Below are positions 2,110 through 55,900 of a stretch of DNA of 64,000 nucleotides, one piece after another. The notes beneath the pieces were generated by a model. It saw only the letters and a program-made list of their open reading frames with translations. It searched no databases and was not told the origin of the DNA. Location: the NCBI RefSeq assembly GCF_000975115.1, contig NZ_BBRE01000001.1, positions 186,001-250,000 on the forward strand. The letters run 5' to 3'. Each line of letters opens with the position of its first letter. Positions within the stretch are counted from its first letter, which is position 1. This DNA is from Demequina oxidasica. Its GTDB lineage: Bacteria > Actinomycetota > Actinomycetes > Actinomycetales > Demequinaceae. Made by a program: the position numbers and the translations under genes.

Positions 2110-2166
2110 TTGTGCGCGTTGGCCCGCGCGGTTCGCCATCCCGAGCCGAACTGGTCCCGTACATTT

Positions 2167-2224
2167 GCGGACCGCCAGATTAAATCAGCCGCTCAAAACG
2201 TAGGTTTAGGGACCGCTACGGGGT
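2167..2224 (-). repeat. Paired-box intergenic element, copy 2 (41-bp spacing, inverted partner of copy 1)
   Basis: On the + strand it reads GGACC at 2169-2173 and again at 2210-2214, again offset 41 bp. The flanks GGACCGCCAGA and GGGACCGCTA match the reverse complement of copy 1 at the same relative positions over a 58-bp frame. It sits 45 bp downstream of the khpA stop. Confidence 0.7.
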
Positions 2225-15285: not shown

Positions 15286-15343
15286 CCGTTCTATTGGTCC
15301 GATTTCGCACGGTCTGACGCTTGTGTGTGCGCTGGTGGTCCGA
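15286..15343 (+). repeat. Paired-box intergenic element, copy 3 (41-bp spacing)
   Basis: CTATTGGTCCGATTTCGCAC (GGTCC at 15296-15300) and CTGGTGGTCCGATC (GGTCC at 15337-15341), offset exactly 41 bp. It lies 13 bp after the smc stop codon. Its reverse complement matches copy 4 beyond the other end of smc, including the block TGCGAAATCGGACCAATAG. Confidence 0.75.
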
Positions 15344-15356
15344 TCTGGATCGGAAC

Positions 15357-18300
15357 CTACTCAGACTCCTTGAGCCTTTGACTGATCACCGTGGTGACCC
15401 CGTCCCCGCGCATGGTCACGCCGTACAGCGCATCCGCAATCTCCATGGTGCGCTTCTGGTGCGTGATGACGATCAGCTGGCTGTCTTCTTGTAGTTCCGT
15501 GAAGATCTCCAGCAGCCGGCCCAGGTTGACGTCGTCTAGCGCCGCCTCGACCTCGTCCATCACGTAGAACGGACTGGGGCGCGCCTTGAAGATCGACACC
15601 AGCATCGCGACCGCGGTCAGCGATCGCTCGCCGCCGGACAGCAGCGACAACCGCTTGACCTTCTTGCCGGCCGGACGCGCCTCGACCTCGAGGCCCGTCG
15701 TGAGCATATTCGCCGGGTCGGTGAGGATCAGTTTGCCCTCACCTCCTGGGAACAGACGCGGGAAGATCCGCTCGAACTGCGCGGCGGTGTCGTTGTACGC
15801 CTCGACAAAGATCTGCTCGACTCGCTCGTCGATCTCACGAACGATCTCCATGAGGTCCTCGCGCGACTTCTTGACATCCGCGAGCTGGTCGGTGAGGAAC
15901 TTGTGTCGCTCCTCGAGCGCCGCGAATTCCTCGAGCGCGAGTGGATTCACTCGGCCCAGCTGGTTCATCGCACGCTCGGCCTGCCGCAGCCGCTTCTCCT
16001 GCTGCTCGCGCACATACGGCACGCCCGATACTTCAGTTTCCTCGGTGTCCCCGTCGCCTTCCGTGCCCTCGACGCCGGAGTCAACCGCAGCATCGTCCCG
16101 TCGGCGCGGCACGGGTAGGTGCGGCCCGAACTCTTCGATCAGCTGCTTGGGGTCCACTCCGAGCTCGTCGATGGCGCGCTGCTCGAGCTGCTCGAGGCGC
16201 ACCTTCTGCTGAGCGCGAGCTACCTCGTCCTTGTGGGCGTCGTCAGTCAGGCGGCGGTACTCCTCGGCGTACTCCTCGACCCCGCGCCGCACCTCGGACA
16301 GCTGCCCGGAGCGTTCGGTTCGTGCCTGCTCGGCGGCCGCCCGCGCATCGTCCGCCCGTTGGACAGAGACATCAATCTGGGCGAGCGTGTCGTTGGCGCC
16401 CTGAATGACCTCGCGCGCGGCCTGAGATTGACGCTCGCGGCGCTTGGCCGCCTCCTCGGCGCGGGCGCGGGCGTCGCGCTCGGCGGTGGCGGCGCGCTCG
16501 AGTGACTCGGCGCGGGCGGTCAGGGCACGTGCACGCTCCTCGGCGGTGCGCAGCGCGAGCCGGGCCTCGGTCTCTCGGGCACGGGCCGCAACCGCATCCT
16601 GTGCGTGAGTATCGCGCTGCGCCTGGGCCGCGATGGTGTCCGTCTCGGTCTGCTCAGGTGCTGCCTGCGCGGCCGCGAGCCGTTCGGTGAGACCAGTGAG
16701 TGTCTCCTGGTCCCCTGCGATGCGTACCGCAGCCTCCTCGAGCTGCACGGTGAGCCGCTCGGCCTCGCCCTTCGCGGCCCGGGCCTGGGCGCCAAAGTGT
16801 CCCAACTGTTCTGCGACTGCGGCCATGCGCGCGTCGGACTCGTTCAGGCGCTCCATGGTGATGCCATGGTGCGAGCGGGCCGCGGATTCGCGCTCCTCGG
16901 CCGCGCGGGTCTCGAACTGAGTGGCCTCGACTACGACGGTCGCGGCGGCGCGCTTGGTCTTCGCCTCGTCGAGCGCGGCCTGCATGTGCAGCACGGAGGG
17001 TGCATCCCCGGCGCCACCGGAGGCGTTGCGTGAGCCCAGGATGTCTCCGCGGCGAGTGGCCGCCGTGACCTCGGGGTGCTCGTTGACAACCGCGCGGGCG
17101 GCGGCCAGGTCGTCCACGACCACGACGCCAGAGACGAATGCACGCACCGTATCGACGATGCCCGCGGCGCCGCTGACCAGGTCCGATGCCCAGGCCGCGC
17201 CGTGAGGAAGGGAGATGGTGGGATTGGTGACAACGGCATCGACGTTGGCGACCACAAACCTGGCGCGGCCGGCATCCTCGTCGCGCAGCCAGCGGATCGC
17301 GTCGACGGCGTCCTCCACCGAGTTCACGGCGAGCGCGTCGGCGAGCGGCCCCATGGCCGCGGCGATCGCATCCTCAGCATCCGCGTGGACCTCGATCTGG
17401 GAGGCCACGGTGCCGCGAACGGAGCGCACGTTCGCGCCCAGCAGCGCGCCGGCGCCGTCCTTGCGGGCCAGCGACAGTTCGAGCGCCTCAGCCTTGGCGG
17501 ACCAAGTATCGCGCTCGCGCATCGCGGTGTTGAGCTTGTCTTTGAGATCGCTGAGGGCGCTCTTAGCGTCCTCCCACTCCTCGGTGGCGGCCTCGTGTGC
17601 CTCGTCGAGGTCTTCCTCGCCGTCCTCGACGGAGGCGACAGAAGTCTCGAGGTGCTGAAATTCGGTGGTGGCGTCGTTGCCGCGCTTGATGGCTGCGGCG
17701 AGCGCCTCGTTGAGGCGGCCAATCTCGGCCTCAGCGGCCTCCACGCGCGAGCGCCGGGCGGCAACGTCTCCCGCGATGCGGGCCACCCCCTCGCGCCGGT
17801 CCGCGACAGAGCGCAAGAGGTTCGCCAAGTGGCGCTCGGAGGTCTCCGCTACGGCTTCCGCGTCGGTGCGACCGGCCTCGGCGACGGTGAGTGCCTCCGC
17901 GGCGGCGACGACCTCGGCCGCGAGTTCCTCGCCTGCTGCGCGCGCACGCTCGAGCTGCTCGTCCAGGTCCACCAGGTCGGTGGGCGGCGAGTGATCGATG
18001 GTGGAGCCCAGCATCCGCACGCGCTCGTCGGCGAGTGCCGCGAGGTTGCGCAACCGCTCGCGAATCGAACTGAGCCGGTAGTACGTGTCGTTGGCCTTGG
18101 TCAGGGCGGGCGTCGCCTCAGCCGATGCTCGCTCCAACTCGGCGAGGCGGTCGCGCATCTCGGCAAGGGACTTCTCGACCGCAGCACGGCGCTCGAGTAG
18201 CGCGGTCTCGTCGGCCTGCTCCTGCTCGAGTGAATTGCCCAACTGCGACAGATCATCGGCGAGCAGTCGTGACTTGGCGTCTCGAGCATCGGCTTGAATG

Positions 18301-18950
18301 GTCTGCGCCTGGCGCGCGACCTCCGCCTGCTTGCCCAAGGGGCCGAGCTGACGGCGAATCTCACCCGTGAGGTCCTGCACGCGCGTGAGGTTGGCCTGCA
18401 TCGCGTCGAGCTTGCGAAGCGCCTTGTCCTTGCGCTTGCGGTGCTTGAGGATGCCGGCAGCCTCCTCGATAAAGTGGCGGCGCTCCTCGGGGGTCGCCCG
18501 CAGCACGGCGTCGAGCTGGCCCTGGCCCACGATCACGTGCATCTCGCGGCCCAGCCCCGAGTCGCTCAGCAGGTCCTGGATGTCGAGCAGCCGGCATGAC
18601 GTGCCGTTGATGGCGTACTCGGAGCCTCCCGAGCGGAACAGCGTGCGGCTGATCGTGACCTCGGTGTAATCGATAGGTAGCGCGCCGTCGGTGTTGTCGA
18701 TGGTGAGCGCGACCTCGGCGCGGCCCAGCGGCGCGCGGCCTGAGGTGCCAGCGAAGATGACGTCGTCCATCTTGCCGCCGCGAAGTGTCTTGGCGCCCTG
18801 CTCGCCCATCACCCATGCGAGCGCGTCCACGACATTGGACTTGCCCGAGCCGTTGGGACCCACCACGCAGGTGACTCCTGGCTCGAACTCCAGCGTGGTC
18901 GCCGAGGCAAAGGACTTGAAGCCCCTAAGCGTCAGCGTCTTGAGATACAC
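15357..18950 (-). CDS. smc: Chromosome segregation ATPase SMC
   Basis: 1197 residues, full SMC length. Walker A GPNGSGKSN at 31-39, a first coiled coil, a hinge around 510-650 with Gly-rich turns, the returning coiled coil, then the ABC signature LLSGGERSL and Walker B FYVMDEVEAALDD near the C-terminus. SMC dimers with ScpA/ScpB load at parS and arrange the chromosome. Upstream is ndk (minus strand) with ~177 bp between, carrying repeat copy 4; downstream is copy 3. The start ATG at 18950 gives the conserved MYLKTLTLRGFKSFA opening. Confidence 0.97.
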   Translation of the reverse strand: MYLKTLTLRGFKSFASATTLEFEPGVTCVVGPNGSGKSNVVDALAWVMGEQGAKTLRGGKMDDVIFAGTSGRAPLGRAEVALTIDNTDGALPIDYTEVTISRTLFRSGGSEYAINGTSCRLLDIQDLLSDSGLGREMHVIVGQGQLDAVLRATPEERRHFIEEAAGILKHRKRKDKALRKLDAMQANLTRVQDLTGEIRRQLGPLGKQAEVARQAQTIQADARDAKSRLLADDLSQLGNSLEQEQADETALLERRAAVEKSLAEMRDRLAELERASAEATPALTKANDTYYRLSSIRERLRNLAALADERVRMLGSTIDHSPPTDLVDLDEQLERARAAGEELAAEVVAAAEALTVAEAGRTDAEAVAETSERHLANLLRSVADRREGVARIAGDVAARRSRVEAAEAEIGRLNEALAAAIKRGNDATTEFQHLETSVASVEDGEEDLDEAHEAATEEWEDAKSALSDLKDKLNTAMRERDTWSAKAEALELSLARKDGAGALLGANVRSVRGTVASQIEVHADAEDAIAAAMGPLADALAVNSVEDAVDAIRWLRDEDAGRARFVVANVDAVVTNPTISLPHGAAWASDLVSGAAGIVDTVRAFVSGVVVVDDLAAARAVVNEHPEVTAATRRGDILGSRNASGGAGDAPSVLHMQAALDEAKTKRAAATVVVEATQFETRAAEERESAARSHHGITMERLNESDARMAAVAEQLGHFGAQARAAKGEAERLTVQLEEAAVRIAGDQETLTGLTERLAAAQAAPEQTETDTIAAQAQRDTHAQDAVAARARETEARLALRTAEERARALTARAESLERAATAERDARARAEEAAKRRERQSQAAREVIQGANDTLAQIDVSVQRADDARAAAEQARTERSGQLSEVRRGVEEYAEEYRRLTDDAHKDEVARAQQKVRLEQLEQRAIDELGVDPKQLIEEFGPHLPVPRRRDDAAVDSGVEGTEGDGDTEETEVSGVPYVREQQEKRLRQAERAMNQLGRVNPLALEEFAALEERHKFLTDQLADVKKSREDLMEIVREIDERVEQIFVEAYNDTAAQFERIFPRLFPGGEGKLILTDPANMLTTGLEVEARPAGKKVKRLSLLSGGERSLTAVAMLVSIFKARPSPFYVMDEVEAALDDVNLGRLLEIFTELQEDSQLIVITHQKRTMEIADALYGVTMRGDGVTTVISQRLKESE

Positions 18951-19021
18951 GGTGTCAGCCTAGGGGAATTTGCGCCCGATGCGACGCAAGCCAGGGGTTT
19001 CGGGCGCGAGCGTGTACCAAA

Positions 19022-19079
19022 ACGGACCACCAGCGCGCCAGCGGCGCTCAGCGTGTGCGAAATCGGACCAATAGCGGGC
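19022..19079 (-). repeat. Paired-box intergenic element, copy 4 (inverted partner of copy 3)
   Basis: On the + strand GGACCACCAGCGCGC (GGACC 19024-19028) and TGCGAAATCGGACCAATAG (GGACC 19065-19069), 41 bp apart. It aligns without gaps to the reverse complement of copy 3 over 58 bp, with both boxes and the TGCGAAATCGGACCAATAG block conserved and the spacer diverged. It lies ~50 bp downstream of ndk and ~70 bp upstream of smc. Confidence 0.75.
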
Positions 19080-19127: not shown

Positions 19128-19547
19128 CTACAGGCTGGGGAACCAGATGCCGATCTCGCGCGCCGAGCTCTCCTCGGAGTCCGAGCCATGCACCAGGTTC
19201 TGCATAACCTTGAGGCCCCAGTCGCGGCCCAGGTCTCCACGGATGGTGCCGGGCGCCGCGGAGGTGGGGTTGGTAGTTCCCGCGAGGGAGCGGAAGCCCT
19301 CGATGACGCCGTTGCCCTCGGCGACGATCGCCAGCGTCGGGCCCTCCATCATGAAGTCGACCAGCGGCTGGTAAAACGGCTTGCCCACGTGCTCGGCGTA
19401 GTGCTCGGAGAGCAACTCGGGAGTGGCCTGCCGGAGCTCGACGGCGACGAGCGAGTACCCCTTGGCCTCCACGCGGCGCAGGATTTCTCCGGACAGTCCA
19501 CGGCGGACTCCATCGGGCTTGACAAGGATCAGAGTGCGTTCAGTCAT
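19128..19547 (-). CDS. ndk: Nucleoside diphosphate kinase
   Basis: 139 residues, normal length. The opening TERTLILVKPDGV and the active-site block NLVHGSDSEESS (His is the phosphorylated residue) are intact, as is the EIGIWFPSL ending. It transfers phosphate from ATP to other nucleoside diphosphates. The start is set at the ATG at 19547 (MTERTLI); a longer frame to 19568 lacks support. It is divergent from apt. In many actinobacteria folC, a DUF4233 gene and ndk are consecutive; here apt and a membrane protein gene intervene. Confidence 0.96.
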   Translation of the reverse strand: MTERTLILVKPDGVRRGLSGEILRRVEAKGYSLVAVELRQATPELLSEHYAEHVGKPFYQPLVDFMMEGPTLAIVAEGNGVIEGFRSLAGTTNPTSAAPGTIRGDLGRDWGLKVMQNLVHGSDSEESSAREIGIWFPSL

Positions 19548-19607
19548 GCCCGCGAGCCTACTAGCCAAGCAAGTATTTACGGTCCTCGGCCGCAGTCTCC
19601 CCCTCCA

Positions 19608-19667
19608 GCGTTCAGCAAATGGTTGAATTTTCTGCTCGCGGAGGCGCCATGTTCACCTCGTGGTTAC
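19608..19667 (+). repeat. Paired-box intergenic element, copy 5 (GTTCA / TGGTT subtype)
   Basis: GCGTTCAGCAAATGGTTGAA (GTTCA 19610-19614) and GTTCACCTCGTGGTTAC (GTTCA 19651-19655). Both GTTCA and TGGTT recur at exactly 41 bp. It lies in the divergent ndk/apt promoter region. No inverted partner of this copy was found near it. Confidence 0.7.
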
Positions 19668-40978: not shown

Positions 40979-43900
40979 CTAAACGCGGCGCACGCGGTCA
41001 GGTCCATGCCGCACTCGCCACACAGCGAGGACGATGAGCCCGCCCAGTGCCACCAAGATGGCAGAGATCGTCGCCGCCAACGCCACGTCGGCGCCTGTTC
41101 CAGATAGCCCACCCGACGGCCCGTCGGGACCTGGCGCTGGAGGCGGTGTGAACTCCGGCCCAGGCACTACGGGAGTGACGACTGGCGTGACGGTCATTGC
41201 ACAGGGCAGCCCATTTGCCATGTCTCCGTCGGCGCACGTGTCGACGGGTGGAGCCGGCGCGCACTGTTCGCCCTCAATGCAGTCGGACAGGGATCCGTCA
41301 AAGGCAACGTTGTCGAGCGTGCTATCGCCCCACGCATGCACGGTCACCGAATATGTCAGGGTCACCGAATCTCCCACTGGCAGCGGCCCCGTCCAGCGGA
41401 TCCATGGCTCCGAAATGTCGAGCACTCCGCCGTCGCGATCGACGGTTGCCCCGCTGTCCAAGGTCGAGTCATCCAGGACATACGAGAGGTCGTCGATCAA
41501 TACCGCCGGGTGCGACTCGGAGTAGTCCGCCTGCCCCACGTTCGTCGCCACCACGGTGTAAGTCACGCGATTACCAGCCTTGACGGAGCCGGGCGCCTCG
41601 ACGGCTTTGGATATCTCTAACGAAGAACCAGTCACCGGCGTACTTGTCGAGCACGCAGGGTTAAATTCCTGGAGCAGGACAGGCAACGGGAAGGGTGACA
41701 TGCGCGGTGCGCTCATCGACGAGTTCACCGCACAAACAGACTCGGGAGGTCCAGTCACAGTGTTATTGAGCTGAGCGTTGCCCGTGGCAGGGTCCTTCAC
41801 CGTGACCGAATACTCGATGGTGGCCGTCTCCCCCGGCTCGAGGGTGCCGCTCCACGAGAGTTGCCGACCGGCAACAGTTACCGTGACGGTGCCGCTCGTC
41901 GCAGTCGCGTCATCCGCATAGGTAGCGTCGTCCAGCACATCTGAAAGATCGTCACTGATGCGCGCGAGATCCGCCCCGGCATACGGGTACGTGCCCGTGT
42001 TCGTCACGTCAACCGTGTAGTGGACCGTATCGCTCGGGTCAACCGTCGCCCCAGCATCGGAGGTCTTCTTGATGCCTAGCGCGCGAATTGGCGTCACCGT
42101 GCTACAGCCGGCGCCGGGGGCTACCCCAGGGTCACAATTGGACTCTGGCGGACCACTCACCACGTTATCCAAGCGGGCACCTGAAGGTGGCGGATCCAGC
42201 ACGCGCACTTCGTACGTGACGGCTACTGACTCCCCTGCGACCAGCGTGCCGGACCACGTGAGTGTGTCGCCACTGACCCCCACCGTGCCCGTGCTGGCGA
42301 CCGGCGTCCCCTCGAGCTCCGCGTCGTCCAGCACTCCTGACAGGTCGTCAGTGATCTGGGCGGGGGCATCCGCCGTGTAGTCGACCGTGCCGGTATTAGT
42401 CACGGTCACGGTGTATTGCTGCACCTGGTGCGGCCCAATCCAGTCCGTGACGGTGGCCCGCTTGTCGATGTGGAGTTGCCGAATGGGCAACTCATTCACG
42501 CACTCCGCGGGCAACTGATCGTTGGCGACGACGCAATTGGATACTGGTTGGCCAAGCACAGTGTTGACGAGGCTCACACCTGCCGGGATGGTGTCATGGA
42601 GTCGCACCGTATAGCGCAGGACCACCTCGGCGCCCGGGTCCAGTTCGCCGTTCCACTGCAGTTTGCGCTCGCCCACGAGATGCTCGAGGACACCTTGGGT
42701 CGGCACATCGAATCCCACCCACGTCGCGTAGTCCAGCACGCCGGAGAGGTCGTCGACCACGTTGGCCGGGCTCGCAACTCCGAACGGCACGGGGCTCGGG
42801 TTAGTGACGGTCAGCTCGTAGGTAACCTCATCCCCCGGCGAAGCCTCGGTCGTGGTCGTGGACTTCACGATGTTCACTTGACGCTGGGGGATGTCGACGC
42901 GGCAACCATCGCCCGGCGTCTGACCCTCGGGACACGTGGACTCCGGCGGCCCGGTGACGGTGTTGACCATCTCCCCGTCTCCCTGACCATCAACAAGTTC
43001 GAACTCGTAGACCAAGGTCACGGTGTCCCCGGAATCGATGGGCCCGCTCCACGTGAGCGTGTCCCCGGAGGCATTGAGGTCGAAGCCACCTACGCCGGCC
43101 GGTTCTGTCACCGGCCCCGGGGTAGCCACCAGATCGGCGTCATCGATCATCGCAGATAGGTCGTCCTTTACGATCGCGGGCTCGGTGGTCGTGTAATCGG
43201 CGCCGCCGGTGTTGATCACCTCGACCCTGTAGCGGACAAGTCCTGTCGCGGCGATATCCGCGACGTCGTTCCGGGTCTTGATGATGCTCAACCCCTTGAC
43301 CGGTGTCTCGGTCTGGCAGCCCGACTCGTCTCCATTCGCGCACGTGGACTCAGGCGGACCGGATACCGAGTTGCTCAGGGTGGTGCCGTCAGCTACCGCA
43401 TCCTTGACTGTCACGCTATAGACCACTGTCACGGTCTCGCCGACCGCGAGCGGACCCTCCCACACAAGCGTGGGTGCGTCGACATTGGGCTCAGCAATCT
43501 CCCCCGCCCTGTCTGCCGTCACGGAGCCGGTCGCAGAGTCGAGCCCAACAAAGGTCGCGTCCTGCAGCACATCGGCAAGATTGTCCTCGATACGCGCGGG
43601 GGCTTCGGAAGGATACACAGCGCCTCCCGTGTTGGTGATTGCAACCGTGTAGCGCACCAGACCTCCCGGGCTCACGGAACTCACAGCCGCGGACTTGGCG
43701 ATCGCGAGGCCGCGTACGGGTGTGGTGGTCGCGCACTCGGCCACACACGTGAAGCCAGCTGGCGCGGTGACCGCGTTGACCAGCACGGCACCGTCGGCAA
43801 CGGGGTCGTCAACCGTCACCGTGTAGATCAGCGTTACTGTCTCGCCCACCGCTAACTCGCCCTCCCACCTAAGCGTGGGTGCGGCGTCAGTTGGCTCAGT

Positions 43901-46900
43901 GATTTCCCCTGCCCGGTCTGCGACCACCGAGCCGACCGCGGAGTCGAGTCCCCCAAAGGCCGCAAAGTCGAGCACGCCGGCCAGATCATCGTTGACCAAG
44001 GCAGGAGCCGCGGCATCGTAAGAAATTCCGCCGATGTTCTGAATAGTTACCGTGTACGTCACGGCGTCACCGGCCGTCGCCTGTGCGACGGAGGCCACCT
44101 TGCTCAACGCGAGCGCGCGCACCGGGGTGTCGGTGCTGCAGCCAGGCTCGTCGCTCACGACGCAGTTGGACGTGGGCGGGCCGGTCACGGAATTGGACAG
44201 CACCGCGTCATCGCTCACAGTGTCTGACACGGTCACGGCGTAGGTGATGATGAGCGACTGACCCACTGCTAGGTCGCCAACCCAGGTGAGCGTCGACCCG
44301 GTGACGTCTGACATCGCCACCTCACCCACGCGCGAGACGGCGTTCGAGTCGATAGCGTCCGTGAGGATCACCTCATCGGCCCCGGCGAGGACGTCGGACA
44401 GATCGTCACGGACTGTCGTATCCAGATACGCGACGGCGCCGGTGTTCCTGATCGTCAGCGTGTAGTTGACCGTGCCACCCAAGGCAGTTTCATCAACGTC
44501 CGCCACCTTGTCGATACTCATAGAGCGCACCGGCGTTGCCGTGCCGCAGCCCGGCTCGTCGCCCGCGTCACAGTTTGACTCGGGAGGGCCGGTCACCACA
44601 TTCGTCAAGATCCCGTCGCTCACCGAGGACAGCGTGTCGTTGACCGTGACCCTGTACACCAGCGTGACCGTGTCGTCGATCGCCAACGGCCCAGTCCACG
44701 ACAGTTGCGGCGCTGTCGCGCTGGGCGGCGTCACTTCCCCACTGCGGTCGGCATCGGCACCATCACGTGCGGAGACGACCTCCACAAACGTGGCATCCGA
44801 CAGCACATCACTCAAGTCGTCCTCAAAGCTGGCCGGCAGTGCGGGAACCAGGTAGTCCACGGCGCCCGTGTTTGTCACGGTGACGGTGTACGTCACGCCG
44901 CCGCCCGGTGCAGTCTCATCCACGTCCACACTCTTCGCGATCGCCAGCGAACGGATGGGCGTCACGGTGCGGCATTCGTCCACGCAGGCGGCTTCCGGCG
45001 GCCCGGACACGGTGTTGACCATGATTGCTCCGGGGTCGCCGGGGTCCTTCACGCGGACGGTGTAGGTGATGGCCAGCGAGTCCTTGACGGACAGCGGCCC
45101 CGTCCAATAGATGTCGGTTCCACCGCCGCTGGGAGTGGTGACCTCGCCGATGCGGTTCGCGCCGTCCGAATCGACGGCGGAGTCGAGCGAGACCCACGCG
45201 GCGTGCGCCAATACGCCGCCCAGGTCGTCGACAATCTTCAGTGGGGCGGCCCTGGTGTAGTCCACACCTCCGGAATTGGTCACCGTAACCGAGTAGTGCA
45301 CCAGCTCGCCCGGCGCGGCGTTGGCGACGCTCACGGACTTCTCGAGCAGCGCGGTGCGCACGGGGGTGGCGGTGGCGCACGTGGGGTCGCACGTCGCCTC
45401 GGGCGGCCCCTGAAGCGAATTGACGAGCACGCCGTCACTCACGGGCGACAACGCATCATTTACGGTCACGGCGTACACGAGTTCCAGCACCTCACCGGGC
45501 TCCAGCGCCCCGGTCCAAGTCAGCACAGTGCCTGATTCAGTCACCTCGGAGTCGCGGTTGGTTGTGGTGCCACCTGTCGTGACGGCCGATGCCGAGACCA
45601 GGCCCCCATACGCCGCGTCGGCGAGCACGTCGCTCAGGTCGTCAGTAATCGTCGCGGGCAGGGCGGACGTGTAAGGCTGCGACCCCGAATTCGTTACCGT
45701 GACCGTGTAGTGGACCGTGGCGCCGGGAACCACCGAGGCGACGTCTACCGACTTGCCGAGGGTGAGCTGGCGCCCTGGGACGGTGACCGTGCAACCGTCA
45801 GCGCAGTTGGATTCGGGTGGCCCGGTCACGGTGTTGGCGAGAATGCCGTCGGATCCCGGCGACAGCGGCGTACTCACCACGACCCAGTATTGAATGGTGA
45901 CGGTCTCGCCCACCGCGAGCGGCCCCGCCCATTCCAGGGTGTCGCCCACCTGCGTGATCTCGTCGGCAACAGTCCGCGTCCCGCTGTCGGAGCCCTCAAG
46001 CGAGGTGACCGAGCCGAAGTCCGCATCCGTCAGCAGATCACTCATGTCGTCGGTAAGGGTGGCGAGGTGCGTCGCGTCATAGGCTGCGCCGCCCACATTC
46101 GTGACCTCAATGGTGTACATCATGGTCGCGCCTGGCGTGACCTCATCCGTGTCGACAGTCTTCATGATCGTCATCGCTCGAACCGGCGTGCTGGTGACAC
46201 ACGTGACGCAGGTGGTCTCGGGCGGGCCAGTCACTGAGTTGTCGAGCACTCCGTCCGAGGAGACCTGCAACACATCGTCAACCCGAACGGTGTACGTCAC
46301 GTCCACGCTCTGCCCTGCGGCCAGCGGACCGGTCCACGTCAGGGTGGTGTCCGCGAGTCTGACTTGGGATGTGCGGTTCGCCCCGTCAGAATCCAGCGCC
46401 GATGCAGCGACCAGATTGGCATCGGCCAGCACGTCGGACAGGTCATCGGACATGGTTGCCAGCGGCCCGGGCACGGCATAGTCCGCGCCGCCGGTGTTGG
46501 TCACCGTCACCGTGTAGGTGAGTTCCTCGCCCACGAGCACCTCAGCCACACTCGCTTGCTTGTCGATGGTCAGCGACCGCACTGGAGTGGTCGTGGCGCA
46601 GCCGGTCTCGTCCCCGTCGACGCATGTCGACTCCGGAGGCCCAGTCACCGAGTTCACCAGGATCGCACCAGCGGCGACGGGATCGGGCACATCAACGGAG
46701 TACATCAGCGTCAGCGTCTCGCCCACACCCAGCTCACCGCTCCACGAGAGTTTCTGCCCGGCGAGGTCAACGTCAACGTCGGCGCTCACGTCGCCAGCAT
46801 CGGTCGCGACCGCGCTGACGAGGTCAAAGTTCTCGGTGTACGCAAGGACCTCGGCGAGGTCATCTTCGAAGTACGCCGGGGTCGCTCCGTCGTATGCGAT

Positions 46901-49900
46901 TGCACCGCTGTTAGTCAGAGTCAGTGTGTAGGTGACGGTGTCACCAGGCGCCGCCACCGCGAGGCTTACCCGCTTGGCCATCTCAAGTTGGCGGACGGGC
47001 GTGGCGGTCGTGCAGTGGTCACACGTGCTCTCAGGCGGGCCGCTGACGGTATTGACCAGTGTTGCATTGTCGACGACCTCCGCATCGACCGTCACTGCGT
47101 ACTCGATGGTTACGGTGTGGCCGGCAACGAGGCTTCCGGTCCACGTCAGCGCACTCGCACTGGTCGCGACCTCGGCAAGGCGATTGGCGCCCTCGCTGTC
47201 GGTGGCGGCGATGTTCGCCAGCGTCGCGTGGGTCAGCACTGCGGACAGGTCATCAGTCACCACAGCGGGGTCTGCCGGAAGTACGTAATCAACTGCGCCC
47301 GTGTTCGTGATGGTAAGCGTGTAATTGACAGTCCCACCGGGCACGGTCTCTGTGACATCGGCCTGCTTGACGATCTCCAAGGCGCGCAACGGCGTTGAGG
47401 TGGTGCACGAGTCGATGCACGTGGACTCTGGCGGCCCCGTCACGGAGTTCACGAGTGTCACATCCCCTGAGGCATCGGCCGGCACGGTGACGGTATAGAC
47501 CAGGGTGAGCGAGTTCCCCGTCGCGAGCGGTCCCTCCCACACCAACGATGGCGTTCCGGACGTCGGCTCCGTGACCTCGGATGTGGGGTGCGCGCCGCCC
47601 TCGTCGCTGAGCGACAACACGCCACCCCACTCGGCGACATCGAGCACGTCAGTCAGGTCGTCCTCAATTCGAGCGGGGCTAGCGGCGTTGTAATCCACTC
47701 CGCCGTTGTTCTCAACCAGCACGGTGTAGGTGAGCGTGTCCCCGGGCGCGACCTGCGTCTGGTCCACGAACTTGGAGACCTCGAGCGCGCGCACCGGCGT
47801 AGAGGTGGAACAGTCGTCCACGCAGGTCGACTCGGGAGGCCCCGTGACCACGTTGACCAGCATTCCATCGGTGGTGGCGCTGAGTGAATCCTTCACGGTC
47901 ACGGTGTAGACAATGGTGACCACCTCATCAGCCGCGAGCGGCCCGGTCCAGGTCAACGTGTTACCCGCCAACGCCGCCTCGCCCACGCGGGACCCGGCGT
48001 CCCCGGTGACGGAGACAATCTGCCCAAAGACGGCATCGGCGAGCACGTCAGCAAGGTCGTCCGTCACGGAGGCGAGCGGTTCAGGCGCGGCGTAGTCAAC
48101 GTCGCCGGTGTTCTCCACGGAGATCGTGTAGGTGAGCACCTGACCGGGAACCGCCTCGGCCGCGTCGACGCTCTTGTCGATGGTGAACTGGCGGTCGGGA
48201 ACCGTGACCGTGCACCCCACGTCACACGGGGACTCCGGTGGCCCGAACACCGTATTGGCGAGCACGGCATCGGGGGCAATGGGATCGTTGACCACGACCG
48301 TGTACGCGATCGTTACCGACTCGCCGACCACGAGCGGCCCCTCCCACACGAGTTCGTCACTGGAGGCGTCCGGGAGTTGAAGCTCGGCGTCACGATCTCC
48401 CGCCACGCTCACGGTGGCGGTGGAGCCTGGCTGGAACGCGGCATCGGCGAGCACGTCGCCGAGGTCATCGGTGATTCGAGCCGGACTGCTCGCCGTGTAG
48501 TCAACCCCACCGGTGTTGGTGACGGTGACGGTGTAATTGATCACGCCGCCCGCCACCACCGTGTCGACATCAGCAGCCTTCACCACATCGAGGGCACGCA
48601 CGGGAGTTGAGGTGGTGCAGCCCGACTCGGATCCGGTGTCGCAGGGCGACTCGGGAGGACCCGTCACCGAGTTGACGATCACACCATCGCTGCCTGAGGA
48701 GAGCGGGTTGGCGAGGGTCACCACATAGATGACATCCACGTAGACGCCCGCGGCGAGCGAGCCGCTCCAGACCAGTTCCGCGCCGTTCATCGACACTTGG
48801 CCGATGCGGTCAGCGCCGGTCGAGTCGACGGCGGTGACCGTGCCCACCGCGCCGTCCGCGAGCACGTCGCTCAGGTCGTCAGTCACGGTGGCCGGCGTGC
48901 CGGGTGCCACGTAGTCCACCGTTCCGATGTTGGTGATACGTAGCCGGTATGTGATGTCGCCGCCAGCCGTCAGGATGCCCGAGGTGGTAGTTGACTTGAC
49001 GATGTCCAGCGCCCGGACGGGCGTGGTAGTGGTGCAGCCGTCGATGCACGTGGTCTCTGGCGGACCAACCACTGAGTTGGTGAGTTCCGCGCCCACCGTG
49101 ACCTCGTCAAGGACCCGCACCGTGTATTGCAGGGTGACGGTTTCCCCGATTCCGAGTTCGCCTTCCCATTGGAGTTGACGTGACGTAGCCGATGGCACGG
49201 TTACCTCGGGAGCGCGCGCCAGGTCGCCGGCAGCCGCTCCCGCAGTGTCCAGACTCACGAATTCGGCGTTCGCGAGCACGTCGGTGAGGTCGTCCGTGGC
49301 GGTGGCCAGGGCATCGGCGGCCGTGTATGCCACGCTGCCGGTGTTCGCAATAACGACCGTGTACTGCAGGGTCTCCCCGGCAAGTACCTCACCGGCGCTC
49401 GCCATTTTCTCCATGGTGAGCGAACGCACCGGCGTGGTGGTCTCGCAACCATCGATGCACGTCGACTCGGGAGGTCCGGTCACCACGTTGTTGAGGGTGG
49501 CGCCTGCCGTGACGGCGGTGTCGACGAGGACGGAATACGTGATGGTGACGGACTGGCCGGAAAGGAGGGGGCCAGACCACGTGATGGAGTTCGCGGCGGC
49601 GGAGAGCTCTGCGGCGCGGTCACCACCGGTGGAGTCGATCGCTCGGACCTGCTGCACCTGAGAGTCATCAACCACGTCGGTAAGGTCGTCGGTGATCGTG
49701 GCGGGCGTGCCGGGCAGTAGATAGTCTGCCTCCCCGATGTTTTCCACCAACACCTCGTACGTCACGATGCTGCCGGGGGCCGTCTCAGTCACATCGACGC
49801 TCTTGGTGATCTGCAACTGGCGATCGGGCAGGGTGACAGAACAGCCGGCCTCACAATTAGACTCGGGCGGCCCGAAGACGGTGTTAGTGGGGTTCGCCTC

Positions 49901-52900
49901 ACCATCCAGCGGGTCGTTGATCGTGACGGCGTAAGTCACCTTGACGAAGTCGCCCGCCGCCAAGGGTCCGGTCCACGTCAACTCCGTGTCCCCGGGCGCC
50001 GCAGCACCGGGGTCGGGCTCGGTCACCTCGCCAGCACGGTTTGCGCCGTTCGAGTCCTGCGCTGAAACCAGCCCATCGAAGGTCGCATCGGCAAGCAATT
50101 CGGCCATGTCGTCTCGGATGGCGGCCGGCGCGCCGGCCGTGTAGTCGGCTGCTCCGGTATTGCGCACCGTCACCGTGTACTCCACGGATGCGCCGGGCGT
50201 CACCTCGGTGACGTTGGCCTCCTTGGCTATCTCCAGCGCTGCGACGTCGGTGCTTGTGGTGCAGCCAGGCTGCGCGCCCGTCACGCACGACGACTCCGGG
50301 GGCCCGGTCACCGAGTTCACCAGCGTGCCATCGGAGGTAGCGGAGAGCGTCTGGTCGATGTCGACGGTGTACGTGATGGTGACGGTCTCGCCAATTGCCA
50401 ACTCGCCCGTCCAGGCCAGCTCGGTGCCGCCCCCTGCGGGGGCGGTGACCTCGCCGACGCGGTCCACGGTCGTGGTTCCAATGGCGGACACGACGGTGCC
50501 GAACGCGGCATCCGCGAGCACGTCCGCGAGGTTGTCCGTCACGGTGGCCAACGTGTCGGGGGCTGCGTACGGGGCGCCGCCGGTGTTCGTGATCACGAGC
50601 TGGTACGAGACCTGGCCACCGGCCGCGGCCTGACCCGTCGACGTCACTGTCTTGGTGACGTCGAGCGACCGTATGGGAGTATCCGTGGTGCAGGTGGGGT
50701 CGCAGGTCGCCTCGGGTGGCCCAGAGACAACATTGGTGAGAGTGGCGGGAGCAGTCAGCGCCTCATTTGAGTTGACGACCAGTGTGTAGGAAATCGTGAC
50801 AGTCTCCCCCACCGCCAGAGGTCCCTCCCACGTGAGTGTCGCAAGGGCGCCGCCTGCATCAGTAGGGGCGAGCACCTCGGCGCGGCGGTCAGCTCCGCCG
50901 CCGTCCTCCGCGCGAGTAACTTCTCCGAAACTCGCATTGGCAAGTACTCCGGACAAGTCGTCCGCGATGCTCGCCGGCGCACTTCCGGCCTCGTAATCAG
51001 CCGCACCGCTGTTGGTGATCGCGACGGTGTAGGTCACAGTGTCTCCTGGCAATGCTTCAGCCAGGTCCGCGCTCTTTCTCATCACCATCTGACGTATCGG
51101 GGTGCTCGTAACGCACTCGGTACACGCGGACTCCGGAGGTCCGGTGACGGCGTTCACCAGGCTCGCGCCGTCGACCACCGAGGCATCGACGACCACGGAG
51201 TATGTAATCTCCACGACATCACCGGGATCCAGCGGCCCGGACCACACCAGCGAGGTCTCGCCCGCAACCTCGTCAGGCACGGACAGCGTCCCCACGTTGG
51301 CACCCGTGCCTTGCAGAAGCGCGGTGGGAGTTCCCGTCAGCGTCGAGTGCGCCAACACGCCGGCCAAGTTGTCCTCAATCCTCGCGGGCAGCTCTGGATC
51401 GGTATACGCCACGGACCCGGTGTTCTCCACCGTAATGGTGTAGGTGACGGTGCCGCCCGGGATCACCTCGGAGACGTCCGCACTCTTGACGACGGCGAGC
51501 GCACGTTCGGGGACCGTCACCGTGCAGCCGTCCGCGCACGTGGACTCGGGCGGGCCCGTCACCGTGTTTGCGAGCACTGCGGTGGAATCTACGGGGTCAT
51601 TCACCTGCACGCTGTAGACCAGGGTGACCGTCTCACCCACCGCGAGGCCGCCCTGCCAAACCAAGTTATCGGAACCCGTCGTGGGCTCGGTCACCTCACC
51701 TGCGCGGTCCCCCGTCACATCGCCGGTAGCCGAAGAAAGCCCCTGGTAGGTTGCATTCTGAAGCACGTCCGACAGGTCATCCGTAACGACCGCCGTGCTG
51801 CCGGGGTCGGTGTACTCAATGCCTCCCGTGTTTGTGATCTCGACCGTGTACTCGATGATGCCGCCAGCCGTAATCTCCGCGACGCTCGCGGACTTCTCGA
51901 TGCCTAGCGAACGCACGGGGGTGGTGGTGGAGCAGGTCACGTCGCACACAGATTCCGGCGGGCCCGTTACTGAATTCACTAGCACGGCGCCTGGTGGCAC
52001 TGGATCCTTCACGGTCACCGTGTACGAGATTACGATGCGCTGACCTGCCGCAAGCGGACCGGTCCAGGACAGGTCCGTGTCGCCGAGGCCGGCATTCGGC
52101 GCGTCTACGGTGCCGACGGGCGCGCTGGTGTCCGCGTCGATCGCGGTAGGCGTTCCCACAAGCGTTGAGTAGGCGAGCACGTCACTGAGGTCGTCCGTCA
52201 TTGAGGCCGGACTTGCGGGCAGCACGTAGTCAATTGCCCCCGTGTTCTCCAGCGTGATCGTGTAGGTGACGTCCTCGCCGGGCAGGACTTCGGCGACGCT
52301 GGCCTGCTTGTCGATGGTAAAGCTGCGCAGGGGGGTGGCAGTGCCACAGTCCGTGCAGGAGGCGCCCGGCGGCAGGACGAGCGCGTTGATCAGCGTGCCG
52401 GGGGCGACCACGTCGTCGTTCACGACCACGGTGTAGACAATCCTTACGCTCTCCCCCACGTCAAGCGGGCCGGTCCAGGTGATCCCCTGGTCGGGGGACG
52501 CGGACGGCACGACCTCCCCGGTGCGGTCGGCCAGAACCGTACCCGTAGCGGAGACGATCTCACCGAAGCTCGCATTAGTGAATATGCCGGACATGTCGTC
52601 ACTCAACGTGGCAAGTTCCGTCGCCGCGGAGAACTCCGCGGTGCCGGTGTTAACGACATCGACCGTGTAGGTGACGGTATCGCCGGGCGCGGCCTCGGTG
52701 ACGTTCACGGACTTCGCCAGCGTCATCTGGCGTACGGGGACGGTCACGGTGCAGTCGTCGCAGGCGGTCTCCGGCGGACCGGTCACCGCGTTGACTAGCG
52801 TGATCCCCGCGGCCACTGGATCGTCTACCTCGACCGAATAGGCGATCTCGACGACCTCGCCTGGCGCCAGGGGTCCCGTCCACACGAGCCCGGTCTCGCC

Positions 52901-55900
52901 CGCGCTCTCATCCGGAATGGTCAGGGTGCCGACACTGGTGGTGGTGCCTTGCTGGACTGCCGTGGGCGTGCCCGTCAGCGAGGAGTGGGCGAGCACTCCG
53001 GTGAGGTCGTCCTCAATGACTGCCGAGGAGGACGGGTCGGCATACGCGACAGATCCGGTGTTTTCCACCGTGACCGTGTACTCGACGGTGCCACCGGGAA
53101 CCACACTGGTGACGTCTGCGGACTTGGAGACATCGAGCGCCCGCACCTCGGTTGACGTGAAGCAATCGGGTGCAAGAGTGCCACTCGGGTCGCACTCACT
53201 TCCTGGGGCCGAGACGACGTTTCCGAGCGTTCCATCTCCCGTGATCTCATCGTTGACCATGAAGCTGTAGGTAATCGTGGCTGTCTCCAGCGGGGGAAGA
53301 TCACCGCTCCACGTCAGCGTGTCCCCCGCTACTGCCGCGGTACCGATGTTCGCGTCCACGTCACCCTGGTAGACCGCATCCTCGGCGAGGTCGCTGAGGT
53401 CGTCCGCGAGCGCTGCGCCCACGTAAACCGTGTTGCCGACATTGCGTACCGTGATCTGGTACTGAAGCAGCGTGCCCGGCGTCACCGGGCTGGCCGGGGC
53501 GACCGTCTTGACGACCTCGAGTCCCTGAATCGGCGACGATGTGCGGCAGTCGGGGTCGGCGGGAGAGAACGGGCCGCAATTCGACCCAGGTGGGCCAACG
53601 ACGACATTGACGAGTTCACCATCGCCAGTGGGAGGAGTCCCCACTACTACCGCGTAGGTCAACACCACGCCCTCGCCGGCCGCGAGGGGCCCGGACCATT
53701 CGAACTCCTTGGCTACGTCCCTGTACACCGTGGCGCCATCGGACACCGTGCTGTCGGACACGACGTCGACGTCGAAGCCCCAGTCCGCGTCGTCGAGCAC
53801 TCCGGACAGGTCGTCAATGATCTTCGCGGGGTCGGCCTCGGTGTAGTCGCCGTTGCCCACGTTCTCGATCTCGACCTGGTACGTCACGGTGTCACCCGGT
53901 TCAACGACGGCGGCACCCCCCACCACCGTCTTGGTGATGTCAAGTTCGGGCACCTTTGGCGTAGGCTCCAGCAGGTGGTCCTCGACCTCGCCACCGCGCG
54001 CGGCACCCGCTATCGCAGGCGCGGCCACCGTTCCCGGGTAGAGGCGAAGGCGCAAGGCGATGGAGTCTTCATCCACCGAGGGCGCACCGAACGGCACCGT
54101 CACGGACGTCGCTCCATCGGGTACGGAAACTACGACTCGTTCGCCGGGCTCAAAGGTTCCTGAGTTGTCCAGATCCAACCACGCGGCGAGCGTCGCTGCA
54201 CCTCCGGTCTCGTTCGTCACTGCAATGTCGAGGGAGAACGTGGAGAAGTCGTCCGGGTAGTACGTGCCGGGTGCAATGCCGTCCTCATCAGCCTCATCAC
54301 GAGCATCGTCCGCGTCGGCGGCCACCGAGTTCTCGCCGTCGATCTCCGAGTCGACGGAGGTGCCGATCATGAGCGGCGCGTAGCTGTTGCCTTCGTCGAA
54401 GTCGCGCAACGAGTGGCGGGCGCCGTCCTCGGCAAGTGACACCGGGAAGCCTGCCGGCGCGTCCCCAAAGTCGAGGAAAACTGGCGCGGTCGCGCAGCGC
54501 GCCCCGTCGTTCAAGGACGAGGCGGGGCCATACGCGAGAAACGACGCCTCCCCGGTCGCGACATCGACTCGCCAGATCTGACCTGTCGTATTGCTCGACC
54601 CGTAGAGATAGCCGTCAGGGTCCGAATAGACGGCACCAAAGCCCGCCTGGAACGCCCCGTTGAGGCGCCCCGCAGGCACGCCGTTGGGGGCAGTCATGCT
54701 GCCCATGCTCGCGACCACCGAGAAGTTGCCAGCGGCCGTGTCGAACTCAATCAAATCGAAGGTGCCATTCGCCCGGGGGCCCAGCGCGTAAAGGTTGCCC
54801 GAGACGATGTCGAACGCCCAGTCGGAAATGTTCTGAATGCCAGCCGGAAGTGACGCGGAACTAGCCTGTACCAGGGTGTTGAATGTGGGCGACGCTGGAT
54901 CGAGGTCGATCCGGGCGACTTGAGTGTTCGCAAAGTTCCCGCGGGTGATCCACAGCTGGCCGTTAGCATCGATGTCCCCCGAGTTCCAGGCCGTCGTGGG
55001 CAGCGAAACTCCGGTGGTGTTGACAGCCACCCCCAGGGAGGTGAAGCTGCCGTCGCTACCCATCCTGACGGTGCGCCGCGCGTCGTCGATGCCGTAGATA
55101 TACCCGTCAAGGGGATTGAAGCCGGCGGCATTGAGGGCCGCATAGACGTTCGAGAATATTTCTTCAGTTTGCCCCGAGCCCAAGTCCACCGCGAAGACGT
55201 CAAGTGGGTTGCCCTGCAACAGGAAGCCGTCGCTCGGACATTCGAACGGAGGCGGCGTGAGTGTTACCGCCCAATCCTCGACCTCACCATCCTTGACGCC
55301 GCCACCATTTGCCGCGGTGTTGCTCGGCATCGCGGATTCGGGTTCGGTTGAGACTCGCAGACGCATATACGTGTCGAGCAGCACTGTGTCATTGGGGGCC
55401 GTCCACGTGAGCGTCACCGTGTCACTGGTGGCGCCGGCGCTCACGAAGGCGCGCTCGTTATCCTCGAACTTTCCATTGCGGTCGAAGTCGATCCAGCCCA
55501 CCACGGTGGCCTCGTCGCCACTCGTGTTGGAGACCGGGACCTGGACGGACACATCCTCACCGACCGATGCGACGATCACCGGATCGGCAGCGAACGCGTC
55601 GTCGTCGTCCAGTGAGGCGCCCACCCCCGGCTGACCGTCGCGCCCGGCAGTCACAGACGCTCCGAGCATCAAGTTGGGCTCGCCGTTGGTGTCGCGCACT
55701 ATGCCATGGAACGGTCCACCTTGGTTCAGGGTGGTGGTGTATTGGTGGGTCAGGGGCGCGGAGGCCGTGTGCGGCGCATCCGCGAAGTCGGCCTCGACGA
55801 CCGCGCTCGCACATCTAGCGCCGTCGTTGTTGGTGGCAGCCGGGCCGGTTGCGACAAAGTCTGCAGCTCGCGAGCCCGTGAGATCGACCCGCCAAATGTG

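What the first reader, a model, noticed from the sequence alone, without database searches (positions are those of the whole stretch)
15286..19079. Inverted 58-bp elements with paired boxes exactly 41 bp apart flank smc
Copy 3 (15286-15343) and copy 4 (19022-19079) are reverse complements in frame over 58 bp, with GGTCC/GGACC boxes at fixed positions and a near-identical TGCGAAATCGGACCAATAG block, while the spacer differs. Position after smc and before smc, in opposite orientation, and conservation of the two boxes with 41-bp offset (about four DNA turns) point to a protein-binding element or a small mobile repeat, not a coding relic. I know of no described element of this form in actinobacteria.
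Basis: seen in the sequence. Interest (0 to 1): 0.75.

Follow-up and report, generated by a model that had tools for sequence, protein, structure and literature searches.

The report
Nuclease-linked paired-box repeats in Demequina
The repeats beside smc belong to a family of short paired DNA elements that also bracket an uncharacterised DNA-cutting enzyme gene, which looks like an actinobacterial counterpart, with an unrelated enzyme, of the REPIN/RAYT repeats of other bacteria.

Summary
In detail: 41 of 58 bases match and both copies keep a 41-bp box spacing. The genome (a Demequina) holds 18 such boxes, its sister D. aurantiaca 34, 42 other Demequina none. smc is incidental: 35 of 45 outer boxes checked face a gene's stop codon. 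The same double boxes bracket a gene for a ~310-aa protein with an AbiEi-like part and a Vsr-type (MTES_1575/DUF559) nuclease domain. Of 30 such genes from 8 Demequina genomes, 16 have strong inverted repeats in their flanks, against 1 of 202 control ORFs; box sequences differ between families. In one further family, box number follows the cognate nuclease: 90, 73 and 30 in the three genomes with a close orthologue, at most 5 in the other 41. In the window's genome the clpX-valS nuclease carries a second box type, expanded there (18 vs 4). I read this as a REPIN/RAYT-like system built on an unrelated nuclease; the smc copies are older members whose nuclease type I did not find in this genome. 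Binding, cutting and movement are inferred, not shown.

The parts
15291..15311 (-). outer type-1 box of copy 3 (CGTGCGAAATCGGACCAATAG)
   Evidence: 0 mismatches to the consensus
15332..15352 (-). inner type-1 box of copy 3, 41 bp from the outer one; 4 bp lie between it and the smc stop codon
   Evidence: 5 mismatches to the consensus
19013..19033 (+). inner type-1 box of copy 4
   Evidence: 5 mismatches to the consensus; keeps CGGACCACCAG
19054..19074 (+). outer type-1 box of copy 4, 53 bp beyond the ndk stop codon
   Evidence: 1 mismatch
15357..18950 (-). smc, lying between the two outward-facing halves; not thought to be part of the system
   Evidence: Pfam SMC_N and SMC_hinge
19128..19547 (-). 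ndk, the gene whose stop codon copy 4 follows
   Evidence: Pfam NDK
2157..2219 (+). type-2 double box (2157-2178 and 2198-2219, 41-bp pitch) of the second family
   Evidence: 5 and 4 mismatches; (G000:C8:188198)
19607..19628 (-). single box of a third family, 2 mismatches to the box flanking the nuclease gene of L206
   Evidence: not followed further

Best explanation
The elements are short dispersed repeats tied to a resident endonuclease, an arrangement like REPIN/RAYT but with an unrelated enzyme. Each half of a type-1 or type-2 element is two copies of a ~20-bp box four helical turns apart, so two protein units could sit on the same face of the DNA; other families have other spacings or hairpins. 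Halves come as outward-facing pairs or singly. SHOWN: such repeats bracket genes of a ~310-aa AbiEi-like plus Vsr-type (MTES_1575/DUF559) nuclease; different nuclease families carry different boxes; box numbers of three families follow the presence of the nuclease with the same flanks; one nuclease gene lies between clpX and valS in all 8 Demequina genomes first searched while its flanking boxes differ. INFERRED: the AbiEi-like part binds the box pair, the nuclease part nicks or cuts at the element, and elements are copied, rarely, into gaps between genes. The two copies beside smc are old type-1 elements in a genome whose clpX-valS nuclease carries type-2 boxes, so they are probably orphaned and slowly decaying. 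No effect on smc is implied.
For: Flanking inverted repeats score >=18 at 16 of 30 nuclease genes versus 1 of 202 control ORFs, and >=14 at 21 of 30 versus 7 of 202; the one strong control hit is the SDR gene L149:14307-15389, itself inside a type-1 pair. Cognate coupling, third family (box AGCGAAATGGAGCCATTTGGC, up to 2 mismatches): 90, 73 and 30 boxes in G037, G008 and G043, 5 in G030, 1 each in three genomes, 0 in 37, controls 0; a nuclease of 73% identity or more to L220 is in exactly those first three; Fisher 3/3 vs 0/41 p = 7.6e-5. Type 2: 18 boxes in G000, 4 in G036, 1 in G032, 0 in 41 others; type 1: 34 in G036, 18 in G000; the clpX-valS nuclease has type-1 flanks in G036 and type-2 flanks in G000. 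That gene pair is 50% identical, while two other nuclease pairs that kept their boxes are 87% and 92%. Boxes are conserved over their surroundings between species: 94.6% identity against 81.0% (spacer) and 72.7% (outside), 9 gaps. E209, Q228, D241, E252, D254, H259 and R271 are invariant in 30 of 30, as expected of an active nuclease.
Against: No movement was seen directly and no target-site duplication was found; the only clean filled/empty pair (L061 with a pair, L152 with 24 unaligned bp) is too diverged to define ends. 9 of 30 nuclease genes score below 14 (L202, L204, L207, L210, L213, L215, L219, L224, L225); some show weaker repeats, some none. At the clpX-valS locus L202 and L204 show no paired repeats. 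The third-family match between nuclease and boxes rests on three genomes, whose kinship Fisher's test ignores; the half-complete genome G042 has nuclease fragments 57% identical to L220 over 115 residues and only 1 box. The decay claim is weak: 9 gaps worse in G000, 2 worse in G036, 6 ties (Wilcoxon p = 0.027, sign test p = 0.065), the 17 gaps were chosen by hand, and smc-ftsY itself goes the other way (0 mismatches in G000, 2 in G036). Many control ORFs are orthologues of one another, so the 202 are not independent. The single-sequence structure model failed (mean pLDDT 36.8). Whether a RAYT or a DDE transposase exists elsewhere in these genomes was not searched.
Confidence: 0.7

Rival explanations
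1. The boxes are operators of an AbiEi-like regulator. The nuclease represses itself through the flanking boxes, and the scattered copies are regulatory or decoy sites at gene ends; nothing is mobile.
For: The N-terminal part resembles AbiEi (the best PADLOC AbiEi model hits 20 of 30 members; Pfam AbiEi_1 3 and AbiEi_4 4 of 30). AbiEi-type antitoxins autoregulate by binding inverted repeats in their promoter (PMC7319586, abstract).
Against: Boxes also lie just beyond the nuclease stop codon. Copy numbers reach 90. Whole gaps differ between sister species: type 1 in one, type 2 with other spacers in the other (L078/L162, L082/L156). Type-2 spacers are more alike than chance (0.50 vs 0.27), which points to copying.
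Confidence: 0.15
2. They are miniature elements of a conventional DDE or HUH transposon, and the nuclease gene is a passenger.
For: Outward-facing inverted ends and presence/absence between species fit a MITE.
Against: The nuclease, not a transposase, is the gene that recurs between the ends, in different families with different ends, also outside Demequina (8 of 24 loci score >=18). The genes that I identified between halves are the nuclease, an SDR, a DUF1684 protein and smc. Genomes were not searched for transposases.
Confidence: 0.08
3. They are transcription terminators or mRNA 3'-end elements.
For: 35 of 45 outer boxes face the stop codon of the neighbouring gene, median 54 bp away, and none of the 45 lies inside a called gene.
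Against: At L066 an intrinsic-terminator-like hairpin precedes the box (read by eye). No Rfam family reaches its cut-off at the elements in the 14 loci and 7 kb of window scanned. Gaps beyond convergent genes also tolerate insertions best, so the position is expected of a mobile repeat. 10 of 45 do not face a stop in my gene calls.
Confidence: 0.05
4. They are smc- or segregation-related binding sites (parS-like).
For: Two halves flank smc in both species.
Against: The box is absent from 42 other Demequina, which have smc by general knowledge (not searched), and it occurs at many unrelated genes.
Confidence: 0.01

Closest known systems
REPIN/RAYT systems (REP-associated tyrosine transposases)
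   Same: A nuclease gene flanked by two inverted repeats, one close to the stop codon; non-autonomous inverted pairs dispersed between genes; more repeats where the cognate gene is present; vertical inheritance with diversifying repeats (PMC2817692 and PMC8049555, passages read).
   Different: The enzyme is an AbiEi-like plus Vsr-type PD-(D/E)XK nuclease, not an HUH tyrosine transposase; type-1 and type-2 halves are double boxes 41 bp apart; several paralogues per genome; Actinomycetota. PMC2817692 (2010) says no RAYT homologues were found in other major lineages; PMC3733652 lists further tyrosine transposases in other species.
TIRtrons (RAYT-like genes flanked by long terminal inverted repeats)
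   Same: A gene between long inverted repeats that also form dispersed repeat families (PMC3733652, passages read).
   Different: Again tyrosine transposases; the term actinobacter does not occur in that paper's main text.
AbiEi antitoxins (type IV AbiE systems)
   Same: Similar N-terminal DNA-binding region; binding to inverted repeats is known for AbiEi (PMC7319586, abstract).
   Different: A nuclease domain follows it; a partner toxin gene was not looked for; repeats are dispersed through the genome.
MTES_1575 / DUF559 Vsr-type nucleases
   Same: The C-terminal domain matches PF18741 in 30 of 30 and DUF559 in 28 of 30 members at E <= 0.01.
   Different: The type protein MTES_1575 is a large multidomain HEPN protein (PMC3710099, passages); no link to repeats was found in the papers searched.
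MITEs and insertion sequences with terminal inverted repeats
   Same: Outward-facing inverted ends around a gene, and gene-less short copies.
   Different: No transposase among the genes identified between ends; no target-site duplication found; ends are two boxes 41 bp apart.

Membership tests
REPIN/RAYT | cognate gene encodes an HUH/Y1 tyrosine transposase | tested here: not met
   30 of 30 members match PF18741, 28 DUF559; no Y1 transposase among the five Pfam families listed
REPIN/RAYT | cognate gene flanked by two inverted repeats | tested here: met
   16 of 30 strong (>=18) vs 1 of 202 controls; 9 of 30 score below 14
REPIN/RAYT | dispersed doublets of inverted repeats | tested here: met
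   in G037 21 of 31 neighbouring box pairs under 2 kb are 39 bp apart, and 30 of 31 are outward-facing (81 of the 90 boxes were typed in)
REPIN/RAYT | more repeats in genomes with the cognate gene | tested here: met
REPIN/RAYT | vertical inheritance of the gene | tested here: met
   for one lineage: clpX and valS neighbours at L197-L204, 8 of 8 genomes; these copies cluster on the tree, 2 changes vs 7.1 shuffled, though not as one clade
REPIN/RAYT | repeat carries a GTAG or CGTC tag | not tested
   not scanned for
AbiE toxin-antitoxin | AbiEi-like DNA-binding region | tested here: met
AbiE toxin-antitoxin | adjacent AbiEii nucleotidyltransferase toxin | not tested
   the neighbours of the nuclease genes were not scanned for it
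Vsr-type PD-(D/E)XK nuclease | conserved catalytic residues | tested here: met
   D241, E252, D254, H259 in 30 of 30; that these are the catalytic ones is recalled from the Vsr family
Vsr-type PD-(D/E)XK nuclease | fold | tested here: inconclusive
   model too poor; weak profile match to endonuclease-like protein 3hrl, E 0.00057
MITE/IS | target-site duplication | tested here: inconclusive
   none visible at L061/L152, but the flanks are diverged
Rfam RNA element | match to a known RNA family at the element | tested here: not met
   a part of the loci; above cut-off only tRNAs; two microRNA models far below cut-off at the L016 palindrome

The most novel reading that the evidence does not exclude
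AbiEi-Vsr nucleases are the resident mobilising enzymes of a previously undescribed class of bacterial repeat systems, present in several genera of the order. Each nuclease family recognises its own box pair, copies box pairs into gaps between genes and diverges together with them, so REPIN-like populations arose a second time on an unrelated enzyme.
Probability: 0.55. Interest if true: 0.92.

Novelty: categorically new. Interest (0 to 1): 0.84.

Why it matters
Dispersed short repeats with a domesticated nuclease are known mainly from REPIN/RAYT. A second, unrelated nuclease class with the same population pattern would show that such systems evolve repeatedly, give a function to test for a common uncharacterised gene family (profile matches in 72 of 79 genomes of the order), and provide natural pairs of DNA-binding domain and box, such as type 1 and type 2 in sister species, for studying how recognition changes.

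Tried and rejected
smc/parS function: rejected by distribution. Coding relic: none of 45 outer boxes lies inside a called gene. Known RNA: Rfam gave nothing above cut-off at the elements scanned. Recent transposition in G077 (two equal copies): they lie in stretches that are 100% identical over 4,976 bases in opposite orientation, so uninformative on element ends (whose script stopped with an index error after printing the BLAST table). Structure: a single-sequence prediction failed and no fold search was made. Viral contigs: no relative found. Family search PF18741 over the order: the best matches lay mostly in open frames of over 1,000 aa and its loci were not used. In one search, L201 and L210 were read on the wrong strand; corrected. 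The control (150 ORFs) missed loci L059-L099 through a naming slip; one search repeats it with 202 ORFs and the same hits. In one search a direct repeat at 39-43 bp lag (score >=9) after the nuclease stop is found at 6 of 30 against 8 of 202 controls; any lag 14 of 30 against 28 of 202; inverted 9 of 30 against 16 of 202: enriched, not universal. One search picked wrong reading frames in some loci, and no separate control was run for it.
Full report
OBSERVATION. The two 58-bp stretches around smc are as described: 41 of 58 bases match in inverted orientation and both copies hold two GGACC boxes 41 bp apart; the best of 200,000 random window 58-mer pairs reached 34. The paired pattern occurs twice in the window against 0.01 expected.

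GENOME-WIDE FAMILY. The window is G000:C8:186001-250000. Sister genome G036 has contigs of the same lengths as the D. aurantiaca records NZ_BBRF01000001.1 and NZ_BBRF01000002.1, so I take it to be D. aurantiaca. GTGCSAAATCGGACCA (up to 1 mismatch) is found 18 times in G000 and 34 times in G036, never in the other 42 Demequina, and once in the other 105 genomes searched; backwards controls hit once each in three genomes, none of them a carrier. The exact paired pattern hit only D. aurantiaca among the genome contigs; records of the window's own genome may be left out there. A looser pair, GGACC-N36/37-GGACCNNTAG, gives 12 places in G000, 18 in G036 and 0 in 42; its backwards control gives 2 and 5, and 0-4 in the others, and at least one of the 12 (G000:C7:322210) does not look like the family.

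ANATOMY. Outer box GTGCSAAATCGGACCAATAS, weaker inner box, 41 or 42 bp pitch, occasionally three boxes. Many halves form outward-facing pairs across a gap; others stand alone. Of 45 outer boxes, 35 face the stop codon of the neighbouring gene (median 54 bp), 10 do not, and none is inside a called gene. My simple gene caller missed small genes: at L064 and L077 the aligned sequence shows an uncalled ORF, which I read as an HSP15-like S4 protein from recall, ending beside the box. The copy after smc (15291-15352) is one of the 10 exceptions. Genes identified between two halves are the nuclease, an SDR (L149), a DUF1684 gene (L070) and smc.

SISTER SPECIES. Of 17 hand-picked gaps compared, the best box has on average 1.65 mismatches in G000 and 0.71 in G036; some G000 boxes have 3 or 4. 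In nine alignable gaps boxes are 227/240 identical, spacers 243/300, outside 272/374; the box columns were picked from the G000 sequence, which favours them slightly. One gap is filled in G000 (L061) and has only 24 unaligned bases in G036 (L152). The ispE-mscL gap (Pfam GHMP kinase and MscL; the name ispE is recalled) holds a pair in both sisters. In the other Demequina loci where the gap could be read it is short and I saw no type-1 box; L119, L124, L131, L138, L139, L143 and L146 were read on the wrong strand and L125 seems to have another neighbour.

SECOND BOX FAMILY. Where G036 has type-1 elements at L078 and L082, G000 has another double box, GGGACCGCTAG, again at 41 bp. Type-2 boxes (up to 3 mismatches): G000 18, G036 4, G032 1, 41 genomes 0; one backwards-control hit, in G008. 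Seventeen of the 18 G000 places were read out (the 18th is the inner box of one of them) and show the double box, with mean spacer identity 0.50 against 0.27 background; for type 1 in G036 it is 0.40 over 28 sites. This excess suggests common descent by copying.

NUCLEASE. In G036 the gap between clpX (Pfam zf-C4_ClpX) and a class I tRNA synthetase gene read as valS holds an outward type-1 pair around a 312-aa ORF (L071:4681-5619). In G000 the gene at the same place, 50% identical, has type-2 boxes on both sides. The protein has an AbiEi-like N-terminal part and an MTES_1575/DUF559 nuclease domain. A search of eight Demequina genomes gave 4-6 matches each, 37 in all. Of the 30 fetched, 16 have flanking inverted repeats scoring 18 or more, 21 score 14 or more; among 202 control ORFs, 1 and 7 (many of these are orthologues of one another). 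Repeat sequences differ between families. Matches to both clpX and valS flank L197-L204, one from each of the eight genomes, and also L261, L321, L326 and L328 (four more Demequina genomes) and L280 (G047, another family of the order); L258-L260 and L320 repeat places already counted; L263 matches clpX only. On the tree of 30 the eight clpX-valS copies are clustered (2 changes, 7.1 in shuffles, 0 of 500 shuffles as low) though not one clade, and the G000 and G036 copies are sisters on long branches. Two other sister pairs that kept their boxes are 87% and 92% identical. Outside Demequina, 8 of 24 fetched loci score 18 or more, without a separate control and with some wrong frames.

THIRD FAMILY, A FURTHER TEST. 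The box beside nuclease L220 of G037 (AGCGAAATGGAGCCATTTGGC) occurs 90 times in G037, 73 in G008, 30 in G043, 5 in G030, once each in G024, G034 and G042, and 0 times in 37 genomes; controls 0. L220 matches at 100, 78 and 73% identity are in G037, G043 and G008; the next best near-full-length match is 49%, and the half-complete G042 has fragments at 57% and 51%. Of 31 neighbouring pairs under 2 kb in G037 (81 of 90 boxes used), 21 are exactly 39 bp apart and 30 are outward-facing.

READING. The coupling of nuclease and boxes is shown by sequence. That the AbiEi-like part binds the boxes, that the nuclease cuts at them and that elements are copied is inferred. The smc copies are then old type-1 elements in a genome where I found no type-1-flanked nuclease: the loci of the four G000 nuclease genes listed (L292, L293, L295, L218) and of one weaker domain match (L297) were scanned, and only L292 has boxes of either type within 4 mismatches, all type 2. 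A fifth G000 match counted is not listed there.

LITERATURE. Searches: MTES_1575, DUF559 + inverted repeat + mobile (49, none), RAYT + REPIN + actinobacteria (53, none), REP/RAYT/REPIN (57), DUF559 (58, listing only), AbiEi + inverted repeat + Vsr (76, listing), REPIN + endonuclease + actinobacteria (77, listing), Demequina + repetitive element (78, none). Seen: passages of PMC3710099, PMC3733652, PMC8049555 and PMC2817692; abstract and outline of PMC7319586. No description of this association was seen; most subscription papers are not held, so it could be in print elsewhere.

Noticed in passing
window 41340-53900: Many families of imperfect repeats at roughly 400-420-bp spacing (up to 26 copies), which look coding; probably a large repeated surface-type protein.
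   Followed up: no
L156:12960-13397 and L163:3826-4502: A palindrome around TTGTTC..GAACAAGGAAAC is present in two G000 gaps that differ from the sister species; possibly another repeat family.
   Followed up: no
L163:3826-4502: Between gene ends lies an ORF that reads like an ArsR-type regulator (by eye), beside a type-2 box, where the sister has a type-1 pair.
   Followed up: no
L287, L288 (G077:C54): Two copies of a nuclease locus lie in stretches identical over 4,976 bases in opposite orientation, with hairpin-type flanks.
   Followed up: partly
L128, L129, L130, L132: The ispE-mscL gap of other Demequina carries different palindromes or short tandem repeats; by eye those of L132 and L128 resemble the flanks of nucleases L220 and L226.
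   Followed up: partly
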